This document shows positions 10,647 to 47,152 of a stretch of DNA of 64,000 nucleotides, in pieces (positions within the stretch are counted from its first letter, which is position 1; each line of letters begins with the position of its first letter). Origin of the DNA: Dipodascopsis uninucleata var. uninucleata (taxonomy: Eukaryota > Ascomycota > Lipomycetes > Lipomycetales > Lipomycetaceae); assembly GCA_030568195.1 (NCBI GenBank), contig JAJLTO010000002.1, forward strand, positions 310,001-374,000. Reading direction: 5' to 3'. The notes beneath the pieces are model-generated. The model had not been told where the DNA came from. It was given only the letters and a program-made list of their open reading frames with translations, and searched no databases. The position numbers were made by a program, and so were the translations under genes.

Positions 10647-11514
10647 ATGGCAGCTGATAAGTCAAAAAAGGATGAAGGTGGTATAACGTACAATTCGGGA
10701 AGTAGTACTCCCAACACTACTGCTTCAAAGGGTCTTTCTTCGAAGCTCTTGACTATGAAGGTAAGCAGCAGAATATAGGTTGGATATTTCGTCTAGAGCT
10801 TTAGCCTAGCGATAGTTTCCTTATCTTAAGGCATGCTACAAGAAAAAGCCAGTGCTGAGATAGTTGCAATACTCTTGAATCAATCAACAAAGCTAACTAA
10901 AAATTAGTTCATGAGACAAGCAGAATCGCAAAATACAAAAAATACAACAGAAACTAAATCTGCAAGCAGTGATTCTAAATGGACGTTAGGTGACGATGAA
11001 CTTCAGTTAAAAGAGACAGACGAAATTAAGAGTAGATATACCATAATCAGTGGAGTGGGACTAAATGTGATAGATCAAATGCAAAATAATGAAGGTGAAG
11101 TCGATGAAGATTTTCCTAGACCACAAGGTAATATTGGAAGACGGAGCTGGGGAAATTTTAATGAGGTAGGTTTTGTTCTTACAAATAGTAACGTTCAAAT
11201 AAATCCAAACGATTATGAAACGAATTAACTGACATATACAGAAATTTGATATATCGAGGAAAGATGATGCTGATGACGACGCCATAAACAACTCGGAGGA
11301 TAGTGAATCTGAGGACGAAGAAGAAGTTAAAAGGCGAAGGCGCCAAGATTTGGCTATGGAGAAGGACATTATGTTAAGGGCACAGAAGCAGCATCGTATA
11401 TCTGGTGGACTAGCTGCAGAAACCGTAAAATCGGGGAAAAACAATAAGAAGAGACCCAGTGGAGGATTTGATAGCAGCATGACCGACAGAAAGAAAAAGA
11501 AGCCGAAAAAATGA
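10647..11514 (+). CDS. MPP6: MPP6 / MPHOSPH6-like nuclear exosome cofactor
   Basis: Small basic RNA-binding protein of the nuclear exosome; in yeast and human it helps recruit Mtr4 to Rrp6-exosomes for 5.8S 3' processing and decay of cryptic transcripts. Three exons, 10647-10760, 10908-11165 and 11242-11514, give 214 residues, all joined in frame. The N-terminal family motif is rebuilt across intron 1: LSSKLLTMK joined to FMRQAES. The second motif, NIGRRSWGNFNE, lies at the end of exon 2. The C-terminus has an acidic segment (SEDSESEDEEE) followed by a Lys-rich tail (DRKKKKPKK) typical of nucleolar proteins. It shares its promoter region with PWP2, another rRNA-processing gene, and is convergent with YIH1 with 137 bp between stops. 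Confidence 0.9.
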
Positions 11515-11651: not shown

Positions 11652-12844
11652 CTATCGTTTCTTTTTTAAGCTCTTCTTCTTAGTATCCAGACTATCACGA
11701 CCAGGAATAAAACTCCCCTTAAGAAGTGCATTACGCGCACAAACATTAATGTGTTTAAATCTTTGCGAAACATACAATTAGTAAAAGAAGTACCGTAAAT
11801 ATTCATATTGTAGTTACCTGTCAGGACCAAGATGAATACCACCGAACCATCGAGTAACAACTACCATTACATTCCAAGAGTCCTAAACTTAGTTAATGAT
11901 GGAAAAACTTAGGACGTAAAAGCACTCGTACACTTACCGTTAACTAATTAAAAGACGCAATATGACTGTGTTAGTTTTCCAATTCCGATCATCAATATTA
12001 AACAATTATCAGGTCCAAGAAACTCACAGTAAGCAAATGCAGGAGCCTAATAATTAACAAATAAAAGCATTGATTAGTTAGTAGGAAATTAAAATTGACC
12101 AAATTTGCAAGCCATATTATTACCTTCCGCCAGCGGCAGACTCGCCATCATCGTCACAATCTAACGGAAGATCAAATACAGTGTCAGCTTCATCCATTGA
12201 ATATAGGCGTATGCATGGAAATATGAGAATTTCGTACCTTGGATAGTTATTCCAGGCTTATCTGTCTTAATGCGCCAAGCAGTTATATTATGCGTAGCTC
12301 TAGATATTTTCTTGTTCATCTTCAAGGAGACAAGCTTCGCCCTGGCATCACTCACCGACGTGACTTCGATTGCTCGTCCCTCAAACTTTGATTTTCGATC
12401 AATAACTACATCCGACACAAACCAATGCAACGAAGGATCGCTCTCGTCATCATGGTCATCGTTTTCAGCACTACTGGCTCCGTCTGACACATAGCCCGCT
12501 TGCTTTCTCTGTTCAACAAGTTTATCGTCAATCTCAAGCACTTCCCTCAGTTCATCCAAGAAATCAAACACACACACTTCGCCGGGGTGGAAACAACCCT
12601 GCAAAATGCCGTTTAATCTATCAACGTCTACTGACTTGTCTATTAGTGCTATATTGTCTGATAAAGTTACTGAGAGGACAATTGGGCGCTGTTCCTGAGG
12701 ATAGCTTGATGGAAATGATATCTGAATGGAGCACTCGGGTAATGCCGGTGGATGAAGCACGAAAATTGAAGAGGACTGCTGTTCCATACATTCTGGATAA
12801 ATGGCATTAATTGAAAAGATTTCTTCTTCTAATTCTTCGCTCAT
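11652..12844 (-). CDS. YIH1: YIH1/IMPACT, Gcn1-binding inhibitor of Gcn2
   Basis: RWD plus IMPACT protein that competes with Gcn2 for Gcn1 and so restrains general amino-acid control. The N-terminal ~110 residues are the RWD domain (EELEEEIFSINAIYPECMEQ). Six exons on the minus strand: 12238-12844, 12124-12160, 12028-12046, 11938-11943, 11818-11882 and 11652-11760. They total 843 nt, 280 residues. The joins rebuild the IMPACT core: CDDDGESAAGGR, then LLHLLT, LT, DSWNVMVVVTRWFGGIHLGPD, RFKHINVCARNALLKGSF. Exon 4 is only 6 nt. Leaving it out keeps the frame but removes two residues at a place where, as I recall them, yeast and human homologues keep the spacing between HLL/HLM and NV. Exon 3 is 19 nt. 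The C-terminus is lysine-rich. Confidence 0.94.
11938..11943 (-). other. YIH1: 6-nt internal microexon of YIH1
   Basis: On the minus strand the exon reads TTAACG, coding Leu-Thr in phase 0. It is preceded by TTTTAATTAG (acceptor, with CTAAC further upstream as a likely branch point) and followed by GTAAGT, a perfect donor. The flanking introns are 84 nt (11944-12027) and 55 nt (11883-11937). Confidence 0.75.
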
Positions 12845-33480: not shown

Positions 33481-35922
33481 ATGTCGGCAGAATCTTCCTC
33501 TGATATTACTTCTTCTGGTAGTTCATCAATAATTCGTCAATCGAGAGAAGAATCTTCTAAGTCAATTAGCAGTAACAGCAGCAAGAACCACGGTTCATCG
33601 ATTGGTGGCAATGATCACCGACGCCGTGGCAGAAGGAGCAAAAATGTGAACAAGTTTTTATGTATGTCTCGATACTCTGCTTAGTATCTTCGTGCGATTA
33701 AAAGAACCTACTAACTAATCTGACTTATATCTTTAGCTGGTGATAAAGGTCCAGTAGACTCATTACAGTCTTCAAATGGCAACTCGTCTGTTAGTCCGGA
33801 AGACAGGATCGAGTCCTCTGAGCCTTCTGCGCCTGGATCAAAGGTATGTCGGAAATTATAAATCAAACGCTGTAATATTCAACGAACTGTAAACTAACTT
33901 GAGTGTTAGACTGAGATTTGCTTCATCTGTGCGGAACCAGTGAAGTACAGTGCTGTGTCTCCATGTAATCATCGATCTTGTCACATTTGTGCTCTGCGGA
34001 TGAGAGCGTTATATAAGACCAATGCGTGTGTTCATTGCAGAGTAAGTATTTATGTACTAGATTACATAGATAATTGTCAGTTTCTGACGTTAATTTTAAC
34101 ATATAGACAAGTCAAGAGAAAATTATCTTTACAATAGATAACTCGAAGCGTTACGAAGATTACACTAAACAAGATATTGTGGCATCTGATTCAAAACTTG
34201 GAATTGACTTTGACAGGCTGGAAATCCAAGAGGACACGAAGAGATTACTCCAGCTGACTTGTCCGGACAAGAAATGTGATACAGTGTGTCAGAACTGGAC
34301 GGAATTAAGACGTCACGTTAGAGAAGTACATCATAGAAGTATGTGCCAGCTATGCACTCGAAACAAAAAGGTTTTTACGCATGAGCACAAATTATATACT
34401 GCTAAAGCTCTTGCGAAACATGAACGTACTGGTGACGAAGAAGGCTTTACTGGTCATCCTGAATGCCAATTTTGTAAGGACAGGTACTATTCAGTTGACG
34501 AACTACGTGTCCACTATCGAGAACGACATGAAAGATGTCATATATGTGATAAACATCTAGTGGGAAATAGCGAGCCTCAGTACTTTTTCGATTATCAGTC
34601 GCTAGAACAACACTTCAAAACAGAGCATTTTCTTTGTCCTGCTGCCTCATGTCTGGAGAAGAAGTTTGTTGTGTTTGAAGACGAAATTGACTTGAAAGCA
34701 CATCAGCTTTCTGAGCATCCCAATATGTTAGGTAGTGGTAAGTCAGCTCGATTAGTAGAAACCAACTTTCATTTTGGAGTTGGGCACCAGTCTTCTGCTG
34801 TGAACGGTTCTAGTGGTCAGTCTAGGAGACAAAATGGTAGACGAAACAATCGTATCGGTTTCGGTTCTCAATTGTCTTCTGATTTCGACAGATTGCATGT
34901 TAATAATGATTTGAATTCACGTACAAATGATCCCGTTAGGTCGAACTCGTCGTCTGACTTAATTCAATTGTAAGTATAGAAAGAGAAATATGTGAGTTAA
35001 TATCAAAGATTCGATCTAATATGCATGGCCTACAATTAGTCGACATCAAATTTTGGATGAGCGTGCCGCCTCACATCTGAATCGAGATTCGCCCAAATAT
35101 TCTGAGTTCCGACGTCTCAATACTGCATATAAGGACTCCGATATTCAGGCGAAAGAGCTAATATCCGGATATCTCAACATTTTTGACACTGATTCCAATG
35201 AAATGACTATAATTATACATGAATTCGCTGAACTATTCAACGACGAGAAACCAAAGAAGGATGCTATTTTAAGTGCCTGGAGTGATTGGAGAGCGCGAAA
35301 TGAAGATTATCCTGAACTTCCTACTACTTCTTCAGTAGCCAACCAGTCGGGTGCTATGAGATCATCAGCAGTGGTAAGAAAGCCTTTGAATGTGGGTTCT
35401 GTTTGGAGCGGTGCGGCATCTAGTCAGCCGTCATTATCTTCGTCGACTCGGTCATCAATCCCAGCACCTGGTTCGCAAGTATCAAGGATGCCAATGTCAA
35501 AGCCAGCTTCTGCAAGGACGTCTCCTTCCCAGTTTCCTTCAATCTCTTCATTACAGTCCTCATCATTTCCATCAGCATCCGCTGCGTATGCAAATACATG
35601 GCAACCCTCTTCGACACCGAATTCAGTTCCACAGAAGTTGAGTTTTACTGCTCAGAGGCCTGTGTCTAGTGCGGCTAGCACGTCCTCGAGTTCTTCTAGC
35701 AGTTCGAAGATTGTTCGAAATAATCTCAAAGAGTTCCCCTCACTGCCTCCTGCAAAGAAGAAAATTGCACCTTATGTATCTACGAAGTCGTCAGCTGCAT
35801 CATCGTCTAATGCTACTAATGGATGGGCTCAGTCTGCAACCTCTAGGACCGAGGATGAATTGCAGCCAGAGAGCTTTAAGACTGTTAAAAAGGGCAAGAA
35901 AAGTGTTGTTGTCTTTCGATGA
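33481..35922 (+). CDS. HEL2: HEL2/ZNF598 ribosome-collision E3 ubiquitin ligase
   Basis: RING E3 that senses collided ribosomes, ubiquitinates uS10 and starts ribosome quality control. Five exons, 33481-33661, 33737-33843, 33910-34041, 34107-34969 and 35040-35922, give 721 residues (yeast Hel2 is 639). Exon 3 is almost exactly the RING: CFICAEPVKYSAVSPCNHRS, then CHICALRMRALYKTNACVHC. Exon 4 carries the family's C2H2-like zinc fingers: LTCPDKKCDTVCQNWTELRR with HVREVHH, HPECQFCKDRYYSVDELRVH, CHICDKHL and CPAASCLEKKFVVFEDEIDL. Next to these is the family's FDRLEIQ-type linker. The C-terminal half is Ser/Pro-rich, ends with a Lys-rich segment (KTVKKGKKSVVVFR), and includes NLKEFPSLPPAKKK. Start chosen at 33481 rather than an upstream in-frame ATG. 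Convergent with PEX10, 182 bp between stops. Confidence 0.95.
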
Positions 35923-41420: not shown

Positions 41421-44400
41421 CTAGCTCGCTTCAGTGCTGAAATAAGGCCTAAAATGTGCTTCATCTCTTAAATCGGAGTCCTTAACAACGTAATACACAT
41501 GCATTAGAAGATTTGGAAATTTTCTTGCGAAATAATTTACAAATCCATCGGGCATTGATCCAAACATCACTTGAACATTAGAAGGAAGATCTTGATAATG
41601 ATGTTTTTTATTCCTAAGAGCTCTTAATAGGTCAAGTACCTTGTCAGGGTAATACTTGCGGTACTTGCCCAGGTTTTCCAATACACATTTATCCAGTCGC
41701 TTGTGCCAGTCATTATAAACAACTTCCCCTGGGCGAGATTCAAGCTCTTGTAACAATGGACTCGGCGGGTCTCTCTTTTCTATTTCAAATCTGTCTGACA
41801 CTTCTAGGAGGAAGTCTAATCGCTTCTGCGGCGACCAAAAATATGGATGCATCATAATATCTGCGGCTGTTGGTCTATTCTTTGGTACTGGATCTAACAT
41901 TCTTGTTATGAGATCTCTAGCTTCCACGCCTTCATACCCCAGTGCATCCAGGTATTCCAGACTGTAATGACCTTTAATGATATTGGCTTCACGCATATAA
42001 CGATCTCCAAATGGATGTGATCCATTTGATAGAACATAATAAAACACGCAGCCAAGAGAGAATATATCAATCGCTCTTGTTGCTCTTCGATTCGACAATG
42101 TATCAATCACTGCTGGTTCTGACGTTGAGCCACCATTATTGCTTTGAGACGCAATACCCAATTTGTTATAAGAGTTTGATCCACTGTTGTTATTGCTATT
42201 ATTTCCACCATCATCATCATCAATCAATAACTCAGGCGCTCGCCAGCCTGAGGTTCCAGCAGCATGGGCAGTGGTCGCTCTGAAACTGCTTTGATCACCT
42301 TCTAATTTCTTACATAGACCAAAATCAGATATCAAAAGTCTAACTGGTTTTATATCACCTGAAGCAGTAGTTGTCTTCGGCGCTGATACCAGAATATTCT
42401 GTGGTTTGATATCCCTGTGTACTATCTTCAAAGAATGCAGATACTGTAGTCCATTCGTAATCTGGTATAATGTCTTTTGAGTATCCATGCGCTTGACAAT
42501 GTCCACAAAATCATAAGACTTTTCGACTACATCTTGAAGCGTAGCAGGACATAGTTCCAACGCAATATATAAGAACCTTTCGCTCTCTTGCTTGCAAAAA
42601 TATCTCACAACGTTTGGATGATCGTCACTTTCCTGAAGTAAAGAAACTTCATGTGACGCCACATCATAGAAGTCGAGAAGCATTCTCTTAACAGCCACTT
42701 CTCGTTTCTCAAACATTCCCTTGTACACGACTGTTCCGTGACTTCCATAGCCAAGTATGATATCGGATACTTCTAGCGAGTTCAGCTTGAATGGAGCGGT
42801 AGATGTATCAGAACCATCCACCCTCTGAGTGCTTGAAATCTTCGATGTGACTTTAACAATTTCTATCTGTCTATCCGATAGTTTATCCTCTGCTATACCA
42901 ATTTCTTTACTAGTGGAGAGAGTATCTACAGCTTCTTTTTCTTTCGAAGCCTTCATTCCGCCATTACCATTTCGACGGCCACCTCTAGCACCTCGTTTCC
43001 GTTTTTTGATGGTACCCTGGGCACCATCCTTATCATTAGACGTCTCACACACCGGGCCTGTAGAAATCGAGTCATCACCTTGCCTTTCCTCGTTTTCTCC
43101 TAAATCCTGTTGCTCTAATGGTAGGGAAGCTATTCGCTTGTCTACAGTTGCCTCCATGACATTCTCAACTGATCCATTCTTGAATATATTGCTGTCTCTG
43201 ATGGGCTCTGACTTTTTACTTGCAAGCAAGTTTTTGACAGAAGAACTTTTCAAGATAAAATAGATGATCATCAAAAATGGAGTTGCTAGCGCAATATCAA
43301 CAAACGCACGACGAGTGAGTGATACTTTGGGCTCCGGATAGTAATGTCCAGGAAGATAGCCACCAAAATTCGATACAGGTCCTTCTATTCCAGGGAAAGG
43401 ACTTCCGCTAGTGAGTCTCTTTCCGTCATGAACACCTATCAATGAAGTCACTTCTTTACTACTTCTACTAGATGCAGGTATTAAATTCCAAAGAGCCCCA
43501 GGTGCATTTTGGACTAAAAACGGGAAATGCTGTTCTGAGAGTGCGTACCAACCACCATCCATAGTTTTGTTTATGTAAGTTGAAATAGATGCATCTCCAG
43601 TAGAATCAACCTTAGAATTTTTCAGCCGTGGCTGTGGAAGAATAATGAGATGATTATTTTCGTTATTGCTATCAGCAACAAGAGAAGTAGGCGAGAAGAT
43701 ATCGAAAACAGAGATTGCAGGTGACGATAACACCTGAGCCCACGTATTTGTAGAGTTATTAGCATCGACACCCAGAATTACGCCATCATGAAGCGAACAG
43801 ACATATCGATCATCAATGCTCATAGTATGCTGCACAGCCAAATCGTTATCCATGTTGTTTGGACCCCAGACTACGTATGAAACGTTCCATAAGACACGAC
43901 CCTTGGACTGTATCTCGAGTCTATACTCAGTCCGTCCCAACAAAAAAGTATCTGAGATACGTGAGGCATCATCCCAGAGACTATCATCTTCATCCAGATC
44001 TTCGAGGGTTTTTGGCTTGCAATACTCCTGTAAAGCACCCGACCCATAAACGTCTAGAATTTTTCCAGTTCTCGCATCAATCGAATATAGTGTTGTAAGA
44101 CGAGAACCAGTGTAAAGCTTGTCATCTCCGGTGAGAGCGAATGGTGATTCCGCCACAAGCTGTTTAATTGATATTGGTAATTTTTGAAGACCCGTATCTG
44201 CTGCAAAATAGTAAAGTGCTCCATCCCCTAAAGGCTCGACTATCCAAATTAAATCGTCCTCCGGGAAATTTTCTCCTTCTTGTCCGTCTTCTGTCTGCTG
44301 TACCCGTACCACTGAGCCTTCACCTTCTAGTTGCCATAGTTCTAATCCTGTATTTCTATCACAAGCATGAATCGAGCCATCTACGGTAGCCACGAGAAGA

Positions 44401-44693
44401 AAATCGGTAAGCTTCCAATCACTAAGCTGTCTCCCAGTAGATACGCCTGTGAATGCGCCTGAACTACTAGATGATGAGTGCGAGCGAAATTTGTGTCCGT
44501 TGATAGGCGCTATAGAAGATGATTTACCACTTTTCTCAGACACCTGTATATGAGGTGTCACGACCAAATCATTTCTTTCAGAGCTACCGCTGACCAATGA
44601 CGCCGTCTCGGAAAGCCCTGCCTGGAGTGTTAGCAGCAGAATGAACAATGCCGTAACATATCGATTCAAGAATGATATGCAATTGTACTGCAT
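41421..44693 (-). CDS. IRE1: IRE1, ER stress sensor kinase/endoribonuclease
   Basis: Type I ER membrane sensor of unfolded proteins; its cytosolic RNase splices HAC1-type mRNA or degrades ER mRNAs. Single exon, 1090 residues (yeast Ire1 1115). Signal-like hydrophobic N-terminus (FILLLTLQAGLSE). The luminal domain (about 85-400) shows DGSIHACDRNTGLELWQLEG. A transmembrane helix lies near 467-485 (VDIALATPFLMIIYFIL), followed by a Lys/Arg-rich linker. The kinase starts near 636 with GYGSHGTVV, the invariant Lys in EVAVKRM, HRDIKPQN near 758 and DFG near 790. After APE there is an Asn/Ser-rich insert before DIFSLGCVFYYVLSNGSHPF. The KEN RNase domain (about 960-1085) carries LRNKKHHYQDLP and FPNLLMHVYYVVK, with the Asn and His of the RNase site. 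All catalytic motifs are present, so it looks functional. Confidence 0.97.
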   Translation of the reverse strand: MQYNCISFLNRYVTALFILLLTLQAGLSETASLVSGSSERNDLVVTPHIQVSEKSGKSSSIAPINGHKFRSHSSSSSSGAFTGVSTGRQLSDWKLTDFLLVATVDGSIHACDRNTGLELWQLEGEGSVVRVQQTEDGQEGENFPEDDLIWIVEPLGDGALYYFAADTGLQKLPISIKQLVAESPFALTGDDKLYTGSRLTTLYSIDARTGKILDVYGSGALQEYCKPKTLEDLDEDDSLWDDASRISDTFLLGRTEYRLEIQSKGRVLWNVSYVVWGPNNMDNDLAVQHTMSIDDRYVCSLHDGVILGVDANNSTNTWAQVLSSPAISVFDIFSPTSLVADSNNENNHLIILPQPRLKNSKVDSTGDASISTYINKTMDGGWYALSEQHFPFLVQNAPGALWNLIPASSRSSKEVTSLIGVHDGKRLTSGSPFPGIEGPVSNFGGYLPGHYYPEPKVSLTRRAFVDIALATPFLMIIYFILKSSSVKNLLASKKSEPIRDSNIFKNGSVENVMEATVDKRIASLPLEQQDLGENEERQGDDSISTGPVCETSNDKDGAQGTIKKRKRGARGGRRNGNGGMKASKEKEAVDTLSTSKEIGIAEDKLSDRQIEIVKVTSKISSTQRVDGSDTSTAPFKLNSLEVSDIILGYGSHGTVVYKGMFEKREVAVKRMLLDFYDVASHEVSLLQESDDHPNVVRYFCKQESERFLYIALELCPATLQDVVEKSYDFVDIVKRMDTQKTLYQITNGLQYLHSLKIVHRDIKPQNILVSAPKTTTASGDIKPVRLLISDFGLCKKLEGDQSSFRATTAHAAGTSGWRAPELLIDDDDGGNNSNNNSGSNSYNKLGIASQSNNGGSTSEPAVIDTLSNRRATRAIDIFSLGCVFYYVLSNGSHPFGDRYMREANIIKGHYSLEYLDALGYEGVEARDLITRMLDPVPKNRPTAADIMMHPYFWSPQKRLDFLLEVSDRFEIEKRDPPSPLLQELESRPGEVVYNDWHKRLDKCVLENLGKYRKYYPDKVLDLLRALRNKKHHYQDLPSNVQVMFGSMPDGFVNYFARKFPNLLMHVYYVVKDSDLRDEAHFRPYFSTEAS

Positions 44694-45360: not shown

Positions 45361-47152
45361 TCACATCATTCCGCCCGCACCTCTGTTTGCAGTTCGCGGT
45401 TTAGCCCTGATAATATTATCTACACGCAGTAATAGCTCTGCTGCCTCAGACGCACTAGAAACAACAGCTCTTTTAAGCTTATAACTCTCAACAATACCAG
45501 CCTCCCTCATATCTACAATTCTTCCAGAGTCAAGGTCCAGACCTGAAGTGGACATACCGTTGTAAATTGCCGTTCTCAATTTGGCGATCAACTCACTGGA
45601 GTCAAGACCAGCATTGTCTACGAGAATGATAGGAAGTTGACGTAAGGCACGACCAAACGCTTCAACTGCAAGCTGTCTCTTGCCATCTTCGTTTTGGGCA
45701 GCACCGTCCACAGCCTTACTCATTATCATTTCTGAACAGCCACCACCAAGGACGGTTCGGGTCTCGACGACAGTCTGAGAAAGAACTGACAGTGCATCAT
45801 GCAGTGAACGTTCAGCTTCATCTAAAAGCTGCTCAGTGGCACCACGAAGAACTACAGTGCATGCTTCACCAGCAGCAACTCCAGAGAACTTCAAAAGAGT
45901 ATCCTCACCGATCATGATTTCTTCTATGAGGTCACAGTGTCCGAGCTTAACAAGCTCAGGATGGTCAAAAGTGGATGCAATCTCACCACCAGTGACTAGA
46001 GCAAGTCTCTCGATACCATCAAAGTCAGCATGCTCAATAGAAACAATACCGGCGTCAGCAAAGAGCTGTTCTGGCCAGTTATAGATCAGCTGTCTATTAA
46101 TGAAGCAGTTAATGCCATGTGATTTGATTTTCTCAACCTTAGCCTTCATCTTCTCCCTCTCTGCTCTCTCTAACTCAGCTAGCTTACTAGTAGCATCGAC
46201 CTTAACTCGAGCACCGAAAATCTTGACCTTATCGGTATCCATAGCAGTATTGGCAATTAAAATTTTGGCATTCTCAAGACGCTTAGGTTGGTTTACGCCA
46301 ATCTTCTTGTCAAGGATGAAGCCTATAAATAAAGTAAGTTAGAACCTAAAACCATATGATTCAATCTATGTCAAAAACTACATACCTTCATCTAAATAGG
46401 AATCTATCAATCTCCCTCCTGCCTTCTTGATAATCTGTATATGGTCGAGGTTGGTGCTGCCTCTCAATCTTAATACAGCATCGACAGCAAGATTTGCAAA
46501 ATGATCCTTATCCTGACTCAAAACTTTTGAGCTTAGAGTAGTCTTTGCAATAGCTAAAAGGTCTTTTCTAAAAGCCTCTGGATTCTGACCATTGTCAACG
46601 GCAGATTTTTCCAATGCAGTAAGAGCAGCCTTCGATGCTATTCTATATCCTTCAATAATGGTTTGAGGATGAATCTTTCGATCCACTAGTTTTTCAGCTT
46701 CTCTCAGTAATTCCGCTGCTAGCACAGTGACTGAAGTTGTTCCATCGCCAATCTCATCATCTTGCACTTTAGAAATGTTGACGAGGACTTTTGCTGCTGC
46801 ATTATCAAGAGCAATAGATTTCAGGATAGTAGCTCCATCATTTGTTACGAGAACCTCGCCGGTAGATGCAGACTGTAATAACTTATCCATTCCCTTAGGA
46901 CCCAATGTTGTCTTTACTAAATCACCAACAGCGATGGCTCCAACGAAGGCAGAGAGACCTAAATGCAACCATTAGTTTTATCCTATGATGTCTATCACTA
47001 GTATTCCCATCGTTACATACGAGCATTTTCTCCTCTCTCCTCGGTTACTTGATCCCCAAAAATTTGGACAGACTAACGCAGAACGTGAATGTTAGTATCT
47101 CTAAGTCATTAACGCATCATACTCTCATATTCTATTGTAATAAACTTACCAT
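45361..47152 (-). CDS. CCT2: CCT2, beta subunit of the TRiC/CCT chaperonin
   Basis: Subunit of the cytosolic eight-membered ring chaperonin that folds actin, tubulin and WD40 proteins (several of which lie in this window). Four exons: 47150-47152, 47021-47072, 46386-46958 and 45361-46322, total 1590 nt, 529 residues (yeast 527). The first coding exon is the ATG alone; splicing gives [19 protein letters not shown] joined to [20 protein letters not shown]. The chaperonin ATPase motifs are intact: [22 protein letters not shown] and [20 protein letters not shown]. The C-terminus, [17 protein letters not shown], is like other beta subunits with a Gly/Met tail. It lies between IRE1 and RPL39, all on the minus strand. 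Confidence 0.98.

What the first reader, a model, noticed from the sequence alone, without database searches (positions are those of the whole stretch)
11938..11943. Six-nucleotide internal microexon in YIH1
Seen: between exon 3, ending LLHLLT, and exon 5, starting DSWNVMVVVTRW, the sequence TTAACG has a good acceptor (TTTTAATTAG) before it and a perfect GTAAGT donor after it. Inclusion keeps phase 0 and adds Leu-Thr. From memory, yeast Yih1 and human IMPACT have the same number of residues between HLL/HLM and NV as the version with the microexon; skipping loses two. Exon 3 is only 19 nt. Microexons this small are rare in fungi and strain the exon-definition and intron-definition models, because the two introns are separated by 6 nt.
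Basis: partly seen in the sequence, partly recalled or inferred. Interest (0 to 1): 0.72.

Follow-up and report, generated by a model that had tools for sequence, protein, structure and literature searches.

The report
Six-nucleotide exon in fungal YIH1
A fungal gene seems to contain an exon only six letters long that adds two amino acids where related proteins also have them; exons this small are unusual but already known, in fungi too.

Summary
TTAACG lies at 11943-11938 (- strand) in a YIH1/IMPACT gene, between an AG and a GTAAGT. Including it gives a 280-aa protein that aligns without a gap here to the solved 'Protein IMPACT homolog' 6bqi (yeast Yih1, by recall). Skipping it removes two residues and costs 4.5-7.5 bits on Pfam, TIGR00257, 6bqi and a profile built here, and 2.8 bits on TTHA1053. 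All 80 bacterial relatives examined (of 459 confirmed) have the inclusion length at this site. The donor scores at or above all 38 high-confidence introns in 264 kb. No other AG-N6-GT there, on either strand, reaches both scores, and 0 of 20,000 shuffles did. Against: the acceptor is weak for this genome; the profiles support two residues here but not Leu-Thr in particular; and a 145-nt skipping intron is also possible. No RNA data or related fungal genomes could be reached. I judge inclusion, by intron-by-intron splicing, about 93% likely. It is a new member of a known kind: a 6-bp exon is reported in Phanerochaete P450 genes and a 1-nt exon in Fusarium.

The parts
12238..12844 (-). YIH1 exon 1, 607 nt (RWD domain and start of UPF0029 domain)
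   Evidence: Open frame from ATG; RWD and UPF0029 Pfam hits
12161..12237 (-). intron 1, 77 nt
   Evidence: GTACGA..TTAG, branch-like GCTGACA; weak sites, total 10.9 bits
12124..12160 (-). exon 2, 37 nt (codes about DCDDDGESAAGG)
   Evidence: Aligns to 6bqi without gap
12047..12123 (-). intron 2, 77 nt
   Evidence: GTAATA..TTAG, branch-like ACTAACT
12028..12046 (-). exon 3, 19 nt (RLLHLLT)
   Evidence: Aligns to RMLHLIT of 6bqi
11944..12027 (-). intron 3, 84 nt, donor GTGAGT, branch-like ACTAACA at 11975-11969, acceptor AATTAG
   Evidence: Donor 7.5, acceptor 1.8, branch 6.2 bits
11938..11943 (-). exon 4, the 6-nt microexon TTAACG (Leu-Thr)
   Evidence: inclusion scores best (TIGR00257) and 40 and beats skipping; length match; chance tests
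11883..11937 (-). intron 4, 55 nt, donor GTAAGT, branch-like ATTAACT at 11897-11891, acceptor TTTAG
   Evidence: Donor 10.7 (at or above all 38 high-confidence introns), acceptor 5.9, branch 6.0 bits
11818..11882 (-). exon 5, 65 nt (DSWNVMVVVTRWFGGIHLGPD)
   Evidence: Pfam UPF0029 hit in the genome scan begins here, at profile position 73
11761..11817 (-). intron 5, 57 nt
   Evidence: GTAACT..AAAG
11652..11760 (-). exon 6, 109 nt with stop codon
   Evidence: RFKHINVCARNALLKGSF aligns to 6bqi

Best explanation
TTAACG (11943-11938, - strand) is a real internal 6-nt coding exon, exon 4 of 6 in an apparently single-copy fungal YIH1/IMPACT gene, and is included in most or all productive mRNA. Its two residues fill a length-conserved turn between RLLHLLT (probably a helix) and NVMVVVTRWFGG (probably a strand). 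Inferred mechanism: both flanking introns (84 and 55 nt) are recognised across the intron. U1 pairs strongly with the intron 4 donor (GTAAGT and the G before it are complementary to ACTTACC near the 5' end of this genome's U1 candidate). Because U1 and the U2AF/U2 complex cannot both sit on 6 nt, the introns are removed one after the other, probably intron 4 first because of its donor. Once intron 4 is out, TTAACG is simply the first 6 nt of a 71-nt exon and intron 3 is removed normally. Shown: sequence, reading frame, family length match, splice-site scores, U1 candidate, a Prp40-like protein. Inferred: actual inclusion, order of removal, constitutive use, any role of Prp40, and the secondary structure at the site.
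For: Inclusion beats skipping by 5.6 bits on Pfam UPF0029 (107.5 v 101.9), 4.5 on TIGR00257 (42.5 v 38.0), 7.5 against 6bqi, where inclusion is ungapped across the site and skipping opens a 2-residue gap there (195.3 v 187.8), 2.8 against TTHA1053 (23.6 v 20.8), and 5.9 and 5.6 on profiles built here with and without the yeast sequence (100.9 v 95.0; 90.8 v 85.2). NF008600 lists the inclusion and 12-nt forms at E 0.001 but not the skip form. Aligned to the profile without yeast, 80 of 80 bacterial homologs have 17 residues from the second helix Leu to R[YW]FGG, as does the inclusion form; skip has 15 and the 12-nt form 19. The donor scores 10.7 bits, at or above all 38 high-confidence introns; 5 donors that good, this one included, lie in 528,000 strand-bases. 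One AG-N6-GT with both scores this good in 528,000 strand-bases (this one); 0 of 20,000 shuffles. No YIH1 intron was in the training set. The U1 candidate begins ATACTTACCTG. A Prp40-like protein is encoded.
Against: No RNA evidence. The acceptor is weak (1.8 bits; 1 of 38 high-confidence introns scores as low). The dipeptide itself is not favoured: 295 of 400 possible dipeptides score higher than LT on the family profile, 292 of 400 on the profile without yeast, so the support is for length, not for these residues. The 145-nt skip intron has acceptable sites (donor 7.5, acceptor 5.9), keeps frame, and is not unusually long: 16 of 38 high-confidence introns are 145 nt or more. NF008600 slightly prefers the 12-nt form (21.2 v 20.8). 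Counted from GEx to R[YW]FGG without alignment, 77 of 80 homologs have 25 residues and 3 have 23, against 23 for inclusion (counts for the homologs); the alignments place the two extra residues before the helix, not at this site. The homologs were ranked with the inclusion form in the query. Conservation of the exon in related fungi could not be tested.
Confidence: 0.93

Rival explanations
1. No microexon: exon 3 is joined straight to exon 5 by one 145-nt intron (12027-11883), giving a Yih1 two residues short.
For: Frame kept (278 aa); donor 7.5, acceptor 5.9, branch 6.0 bits; length within the range of this genome's introns.
Against: 2-residue deletion where 80 of 80 bacterial homologs and 6bqi have none; lower scores in each profile that lists both forms; leaves unexplained a top-scoring donor exactly 6 nt after an AG.
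Confidence: 0.03
2. Both forms are made: the microexon is a cassette exon and skipping yields a second Yih1 isoform.
For: Symmetric phase-0 exon of 6 nt with a weak acceptor and a usable skip pair. A glucose-switched 20-nt microexon exists in Trichoderma Xlr2 (PMC11121469, abstract and passages).
Against: The skip form deletes two residues in a length-conserved stretch; I saw nothing in the sequence that points to regulation, though I did not search for regulatory motifs.
Confidence: 0.07
3. The exon is 12 nt (TTAACGGTAAGT, Leu-Thr-Val-Ser), using the GTACGA donor at 11931.
For: Frame open (282 aa); intron 1 also starts GTACGA; NF008600 0.4 bit higher than for the 6-nt form.
Against: Donor scores -1.1 against 10.7; 5.4 bits lower on Pfam, 1.9 on TIGR00257, 4.8 and 4.1 on the two profiles built here; two residues longer than 80 of 80 homologs at the site. 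Not run against 6bqi.
Confidence: 0.02

Closest known systems
6-bp exon in P450 genes of Phanerochaete chrysosporium (PMC1184071, part of the abstract and passages seen)
   Same: Same length (2 codons), fungus, many short introns
   Different: P450 multigene family in a white-rot fungus; here an apparently single-copy conserved gene, in what looks like an ascomycete. The evidence behind that 6-bp exon was not checked
1-nt exon of CYP621A in Fusarium (PMC12940212, first of three parts seen)
   Same: Fungal ultra-small exon inferred from a required protein length between two introns
   Different: 1 nt, frame-restoring, backed by 20 orthologs and SRA reads of two species; here 6 nt, frame-neutral, no RNA or ortholog evidence
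1-nt exon of Arabidopsis APC11 (PMC4674806, passages seen)
   Same: Constitutive exon far smaller than usual; [quoted passage not shown]
   Different: Plant; tested with GFP fusion constructs
20-nt microexon of Trichoderma Xlr2 (PMC11121469, passages seen)
   Same: Fungal microexon with canonical flanking splice sites
   Different: Regulated by glucose and larger; regulation here is not shown
PRP-40/PRPF40A-dependent microexons of worm and mouse (PMC11463390, passages seen)
   Same: Intron-definition solution to an exon too small for cross-exon complexes; a Prp40-like protein is encoded here
   Different: Metazoan, partly SRRM4-dependent; no such regulator was sought here and no link to Prp40 is shown

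Membership tests
YIH1/IMPACT | N-terminal RWD domain | tested here: met
   PF05773, 38.6 bits, cut-off 22.8
YIH1/IMPACT | C-terminal UPF0029 (IMPACT) domain | tested here: met
   PF01205, 107.5 bits, full profile 1-107
YIH1/IMPACT | Full-length similarity to a solved IMPACT homolog (6bqi) | tested here: met
   E 1.1e-56, residues 3-262; that 6bqi is S. cerevisiae Yih1 is recalled
YIH1/IMPACT | Binding Gcn1 and restraining Gcn2 | not testable with these tools
   Needs experiment; function recalled, and the GCN2-inhibitor role of IMPACT seen in an abstract start
internal microexon (30 nt or less) | Flanked by AG and GT, with flanking introns having donor, branch and acceptor signals | tested here: met
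   acceptor of intron 3 weak
internal microexon (30 nt or less) | Required by the protein family's length | tested here: met
internal microexon (30 nt or less) | Present in spliced transcripts | not testable with these tools
   No RNA-seq available
internal microexon (30 nt or less) | Conserved in orthologs | not testable with these tools
   No relatives of this genome held; one scan of viral contigs gave no relative; the prokaryote homologs match as continuous frames
regulated (switch-like) microexon | Inclusion changes with condition | not testable with these tools
   No RNA data

The most novel reading that the evidence does not exclude
The weak acceptor makes inclusion of the 6-nt exon condition-dependent, so that the fungus makes two Yih1 forms differing by Leu-Thr in the core of the Gcn2-restraining protein, tuning the amino-acid starvation response through splicing.
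Probability: 0.06. Interest if true: 0.6.

Novelty: new member of a known kind. Interest (0 to 1): 0.3.

Why it matters
A conserved, apparently single-copy gene with consecutive 37-, 19- and 6-nt exons is a compact natural test of intron-by-intron splicing in a fungus. It is also a case that exon-size limits in gene finders could miss (an expectation, not tested here), leaving a Yih1 two residues short or broken. It does not change the general picture of splicing.

Tried and rejected
Acceptor at 11966 (ACACAG, 4.7 bits, better than the one chosen), giving a 28-nt exon: read in frame it meets TAA, and the AG lies about 5 nt after the likely branch A, so I rejected it. Retention of intron 3 or of intron 4: both meet in-frame stops on reading the sequence. 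Intron length as evidence: rejected, since 16 of 38 high-confidence introns are 145 nt or longer, unlike the Fusarium case. Residue identity as evidence: rejected.

Search for other microexons of 30 nt or less in 264 kb: 0 real and 0 control with strict settings, which ask for 45 coding nt on each side and which YIH1 itself cannot pass because exon 3 is 19 nt. Three looser settings gave 46 real v 30 control, 98 v 13 and 70 v 134; the YIH1 exon was found only with the third. They conflict and rest on sequence alone, and control sequences rarely have the coding flanks that the second setting demands. I draw no conclusion on how common microexons are in this genome. A first simple intron finder had many false hits (73 real v 32 control) and was replaced.

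Counts of homolog length: a first pattern matched 68 of 80 (65 with 16 residues after the helix Leu, 3 with 13, 12 unmatched), and a looser count gave 73 at 25, 3 at 23, 3 at 37 and 1 at 39. One search, taking the shortest match in each, gave 77 at 25 and 3 at 23. One search, aligning all 80 to the profile, gave 17 residues at the site in 80 of 80; that alignment is fitted to a profile made from the same 80.

The scan of viral contigs found no relative. Paper searches that gave nothing on the point: microexons with Lipomyces (no paper); Yih1 with intron (7 papers listed, none by title or abstract start on YIH1 gene structure); mini-exons in Ascomycota (2 listed).

Full report
What is there. 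On the - strand, 12844-11652 encodes a Yih1/IMPACT protein in six exons of 607, 37, 19, 6, 65 and 109 nt, separated by introns of 77, 77, 84, 55 and 57 nt. The protein has an RWD domain and a UPF0029 domain and matches the solved 'Protein IMPACT homolog' 6bqi at E 1.1e-56; that 6bqi is S. cerevisiae Yih1 is recalled. The genome search with UPF0029 found two pieces, both in this gene, so it appears single-copy (multi-exon genes match piecemeal).

Is the exon needed? Three protein forms were compared: inclusion (280 aa), skip (278) and a 12-nt alternative (282). Pfam UPF0029: 107.5, 101.9, 102.1 bits. TIGR00257: 42.5, 38.0, 40.6. NF008600: 20.8, not listed at E 0.001, 21.2, the one comparison in which the 12-nt form leads. 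6bqi: 195.3 for inclusion with HLLTLTDSWNV over HLITIMDVWNV and no gap there, 187.8 for skip with a 2-residue gap (the 12-nt form was not run). TTHA1053: 23.6 and 20.8. Profile built here from 80 bacterial homologs plus the 6bqi sequence: 100.9, 95.0, 96.1; without it: 90.8, 85.2, 86.7.

Length at the site. The 80 homologs were kept as best of 459 confirmed; the two search patterns flank the site and do not span it, but the ranking used a query that includes the two residues. Aligned to the profile without yeast, 80 of 80 have 17 residues from the second helix Leu to R[YW]FGG, as does inclusion, while skip has 15 and the 12-nt form 19. Counted without alignment from GEx to R[YW]FGG, 77 have 25 and 3 have 23 residues; inclusion has 23, skip 21 and the 12-nt form 25 by direct count, so this raw count taken alone does not exclude the 12-nt form. 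The alignments put the two extra bacterial residues before the helix. The support is for the number of residues only: 295 of 400 dipeptides would score better than Leu-Thr.

Are the splice sites real? A site model was trained on 51 introns in 264 kb (11 hits in control sequences at the same threshold; 38 v 1 at a stricter threshold). None of the YIH1 introns was in it. The microexon's donor scores 10.7, at or above all 38; its acceptor scores 1.8, near the bottom, as does intron 1's. Intron 3 has ACTAACA and intron 4 ATTAACT as branch-like sites. AG-N6-GT with both scores at least as good occurs once in 528,000 strand-bases, here; with cut-offs of 7.0 and 1.8 it occurs 14 times. Among 20,000 shuffles of the 145-nt stretch, 3,216 held some stop-free AG-N6-GT, 42 reached the summed score, 37 had a donor of at least 7.5 with an acceptor as good, and 0 reached both scores. 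These tests ask for exactly the 6-nt length that the protein family independently points to.

How it probably works. The genome has a U1 candidate (57.6 bits, under Rfam's cut-off of 69.5) starting ATACTTACCTG, complementary to GTAAGT and the preceding G of the microexon donor. It also encodes a protein with three FF domains and a PRPF40A-type FF domain (55.0 bits, cut-off 27), whose best solved match is PRP40 (6n7p, E 2.9e-29). With short introns and 6 nt between them, cross-exon recognition is not feasible. Intron-by-intron removal, helped by PRP-40/PRPF40A, is the mechanism proposed for microexons in worm and mouse (PMC11463390 passages; also PMC8624252 passages). That Prp40 acts here, and that intron 4 goes first, are my inferences.

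Organism. PWP2 from the window matches 6lqs at 1183 bits, 5oql at 1168 and 7mq8 at 817; that these are S. cerevisiae, Chaetomium and human is recalled. This points to an ascomycete. I could not name it.

Novelty. A fungal P450 gene set with a shortest exon of 6 bp was reported in 2005 (PMC1184071 passages), a 1-nt fungal exon in 2026 (PMC12940212, first part), and 6 nt was called the smallest known constitutive exon in 2015 (PMC4674806 passages). The 2024 Trichoderma paper says microexons in fungi had been experimentally tested only in S. pombe (PMC11121469 passages). A microexon in YIH1 did not appear in the listings, in a library that lacks most subscription journals. This is a likely real, well-supported finding of an ordinary kind.

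Noticed in passing
window 10911-11514 (+ strand): A convergent gene of two exons by eye (intron about 11166-11241, GTAGGT..ACAG); its first exon has a weak MPP6 match (21.8 bits, under the cut-off of 29.4) and its second no Pfam match. Its stop lies about 140 bp from the YIH1 stop.
   Followed up: partly
window 34107-35922: Hel2/ZNF598-type gene (C2H2 zinc finger and ZNF598 PAH domains) in two frames, probably split by an intron near 34974-35019.
   Followed up: no
window 41421-44693: IRE1-type gene with kinase and Ribonuclease 2-5A domains in one open frame.
   Followed up: no
window 45361-46971: TCP-1/cpn60-type chaperonin gene in two frames with a probable intron between them near 46340-46380.
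   Followed up: no
window 12844-11652: YIH1 has five introns although only 51 introns with coding flanks were found in 264 kb; the finder needs 75 coding nt on each side and so undercounts genes with small exons.
   Followed up: partly
L024, L025, L026: These three bacterial homologs (titled Rhizobiaceae group, Carideicomes, Litoreibacter) have 23 rather than 25 residues from GEx to R[YW]FGG (3 of 80), carry RWFGG (7 of 80 do) and are the best three matches to the query alignment; possibly a subfamily nearer the eukaryotic one.
   Followed up: no
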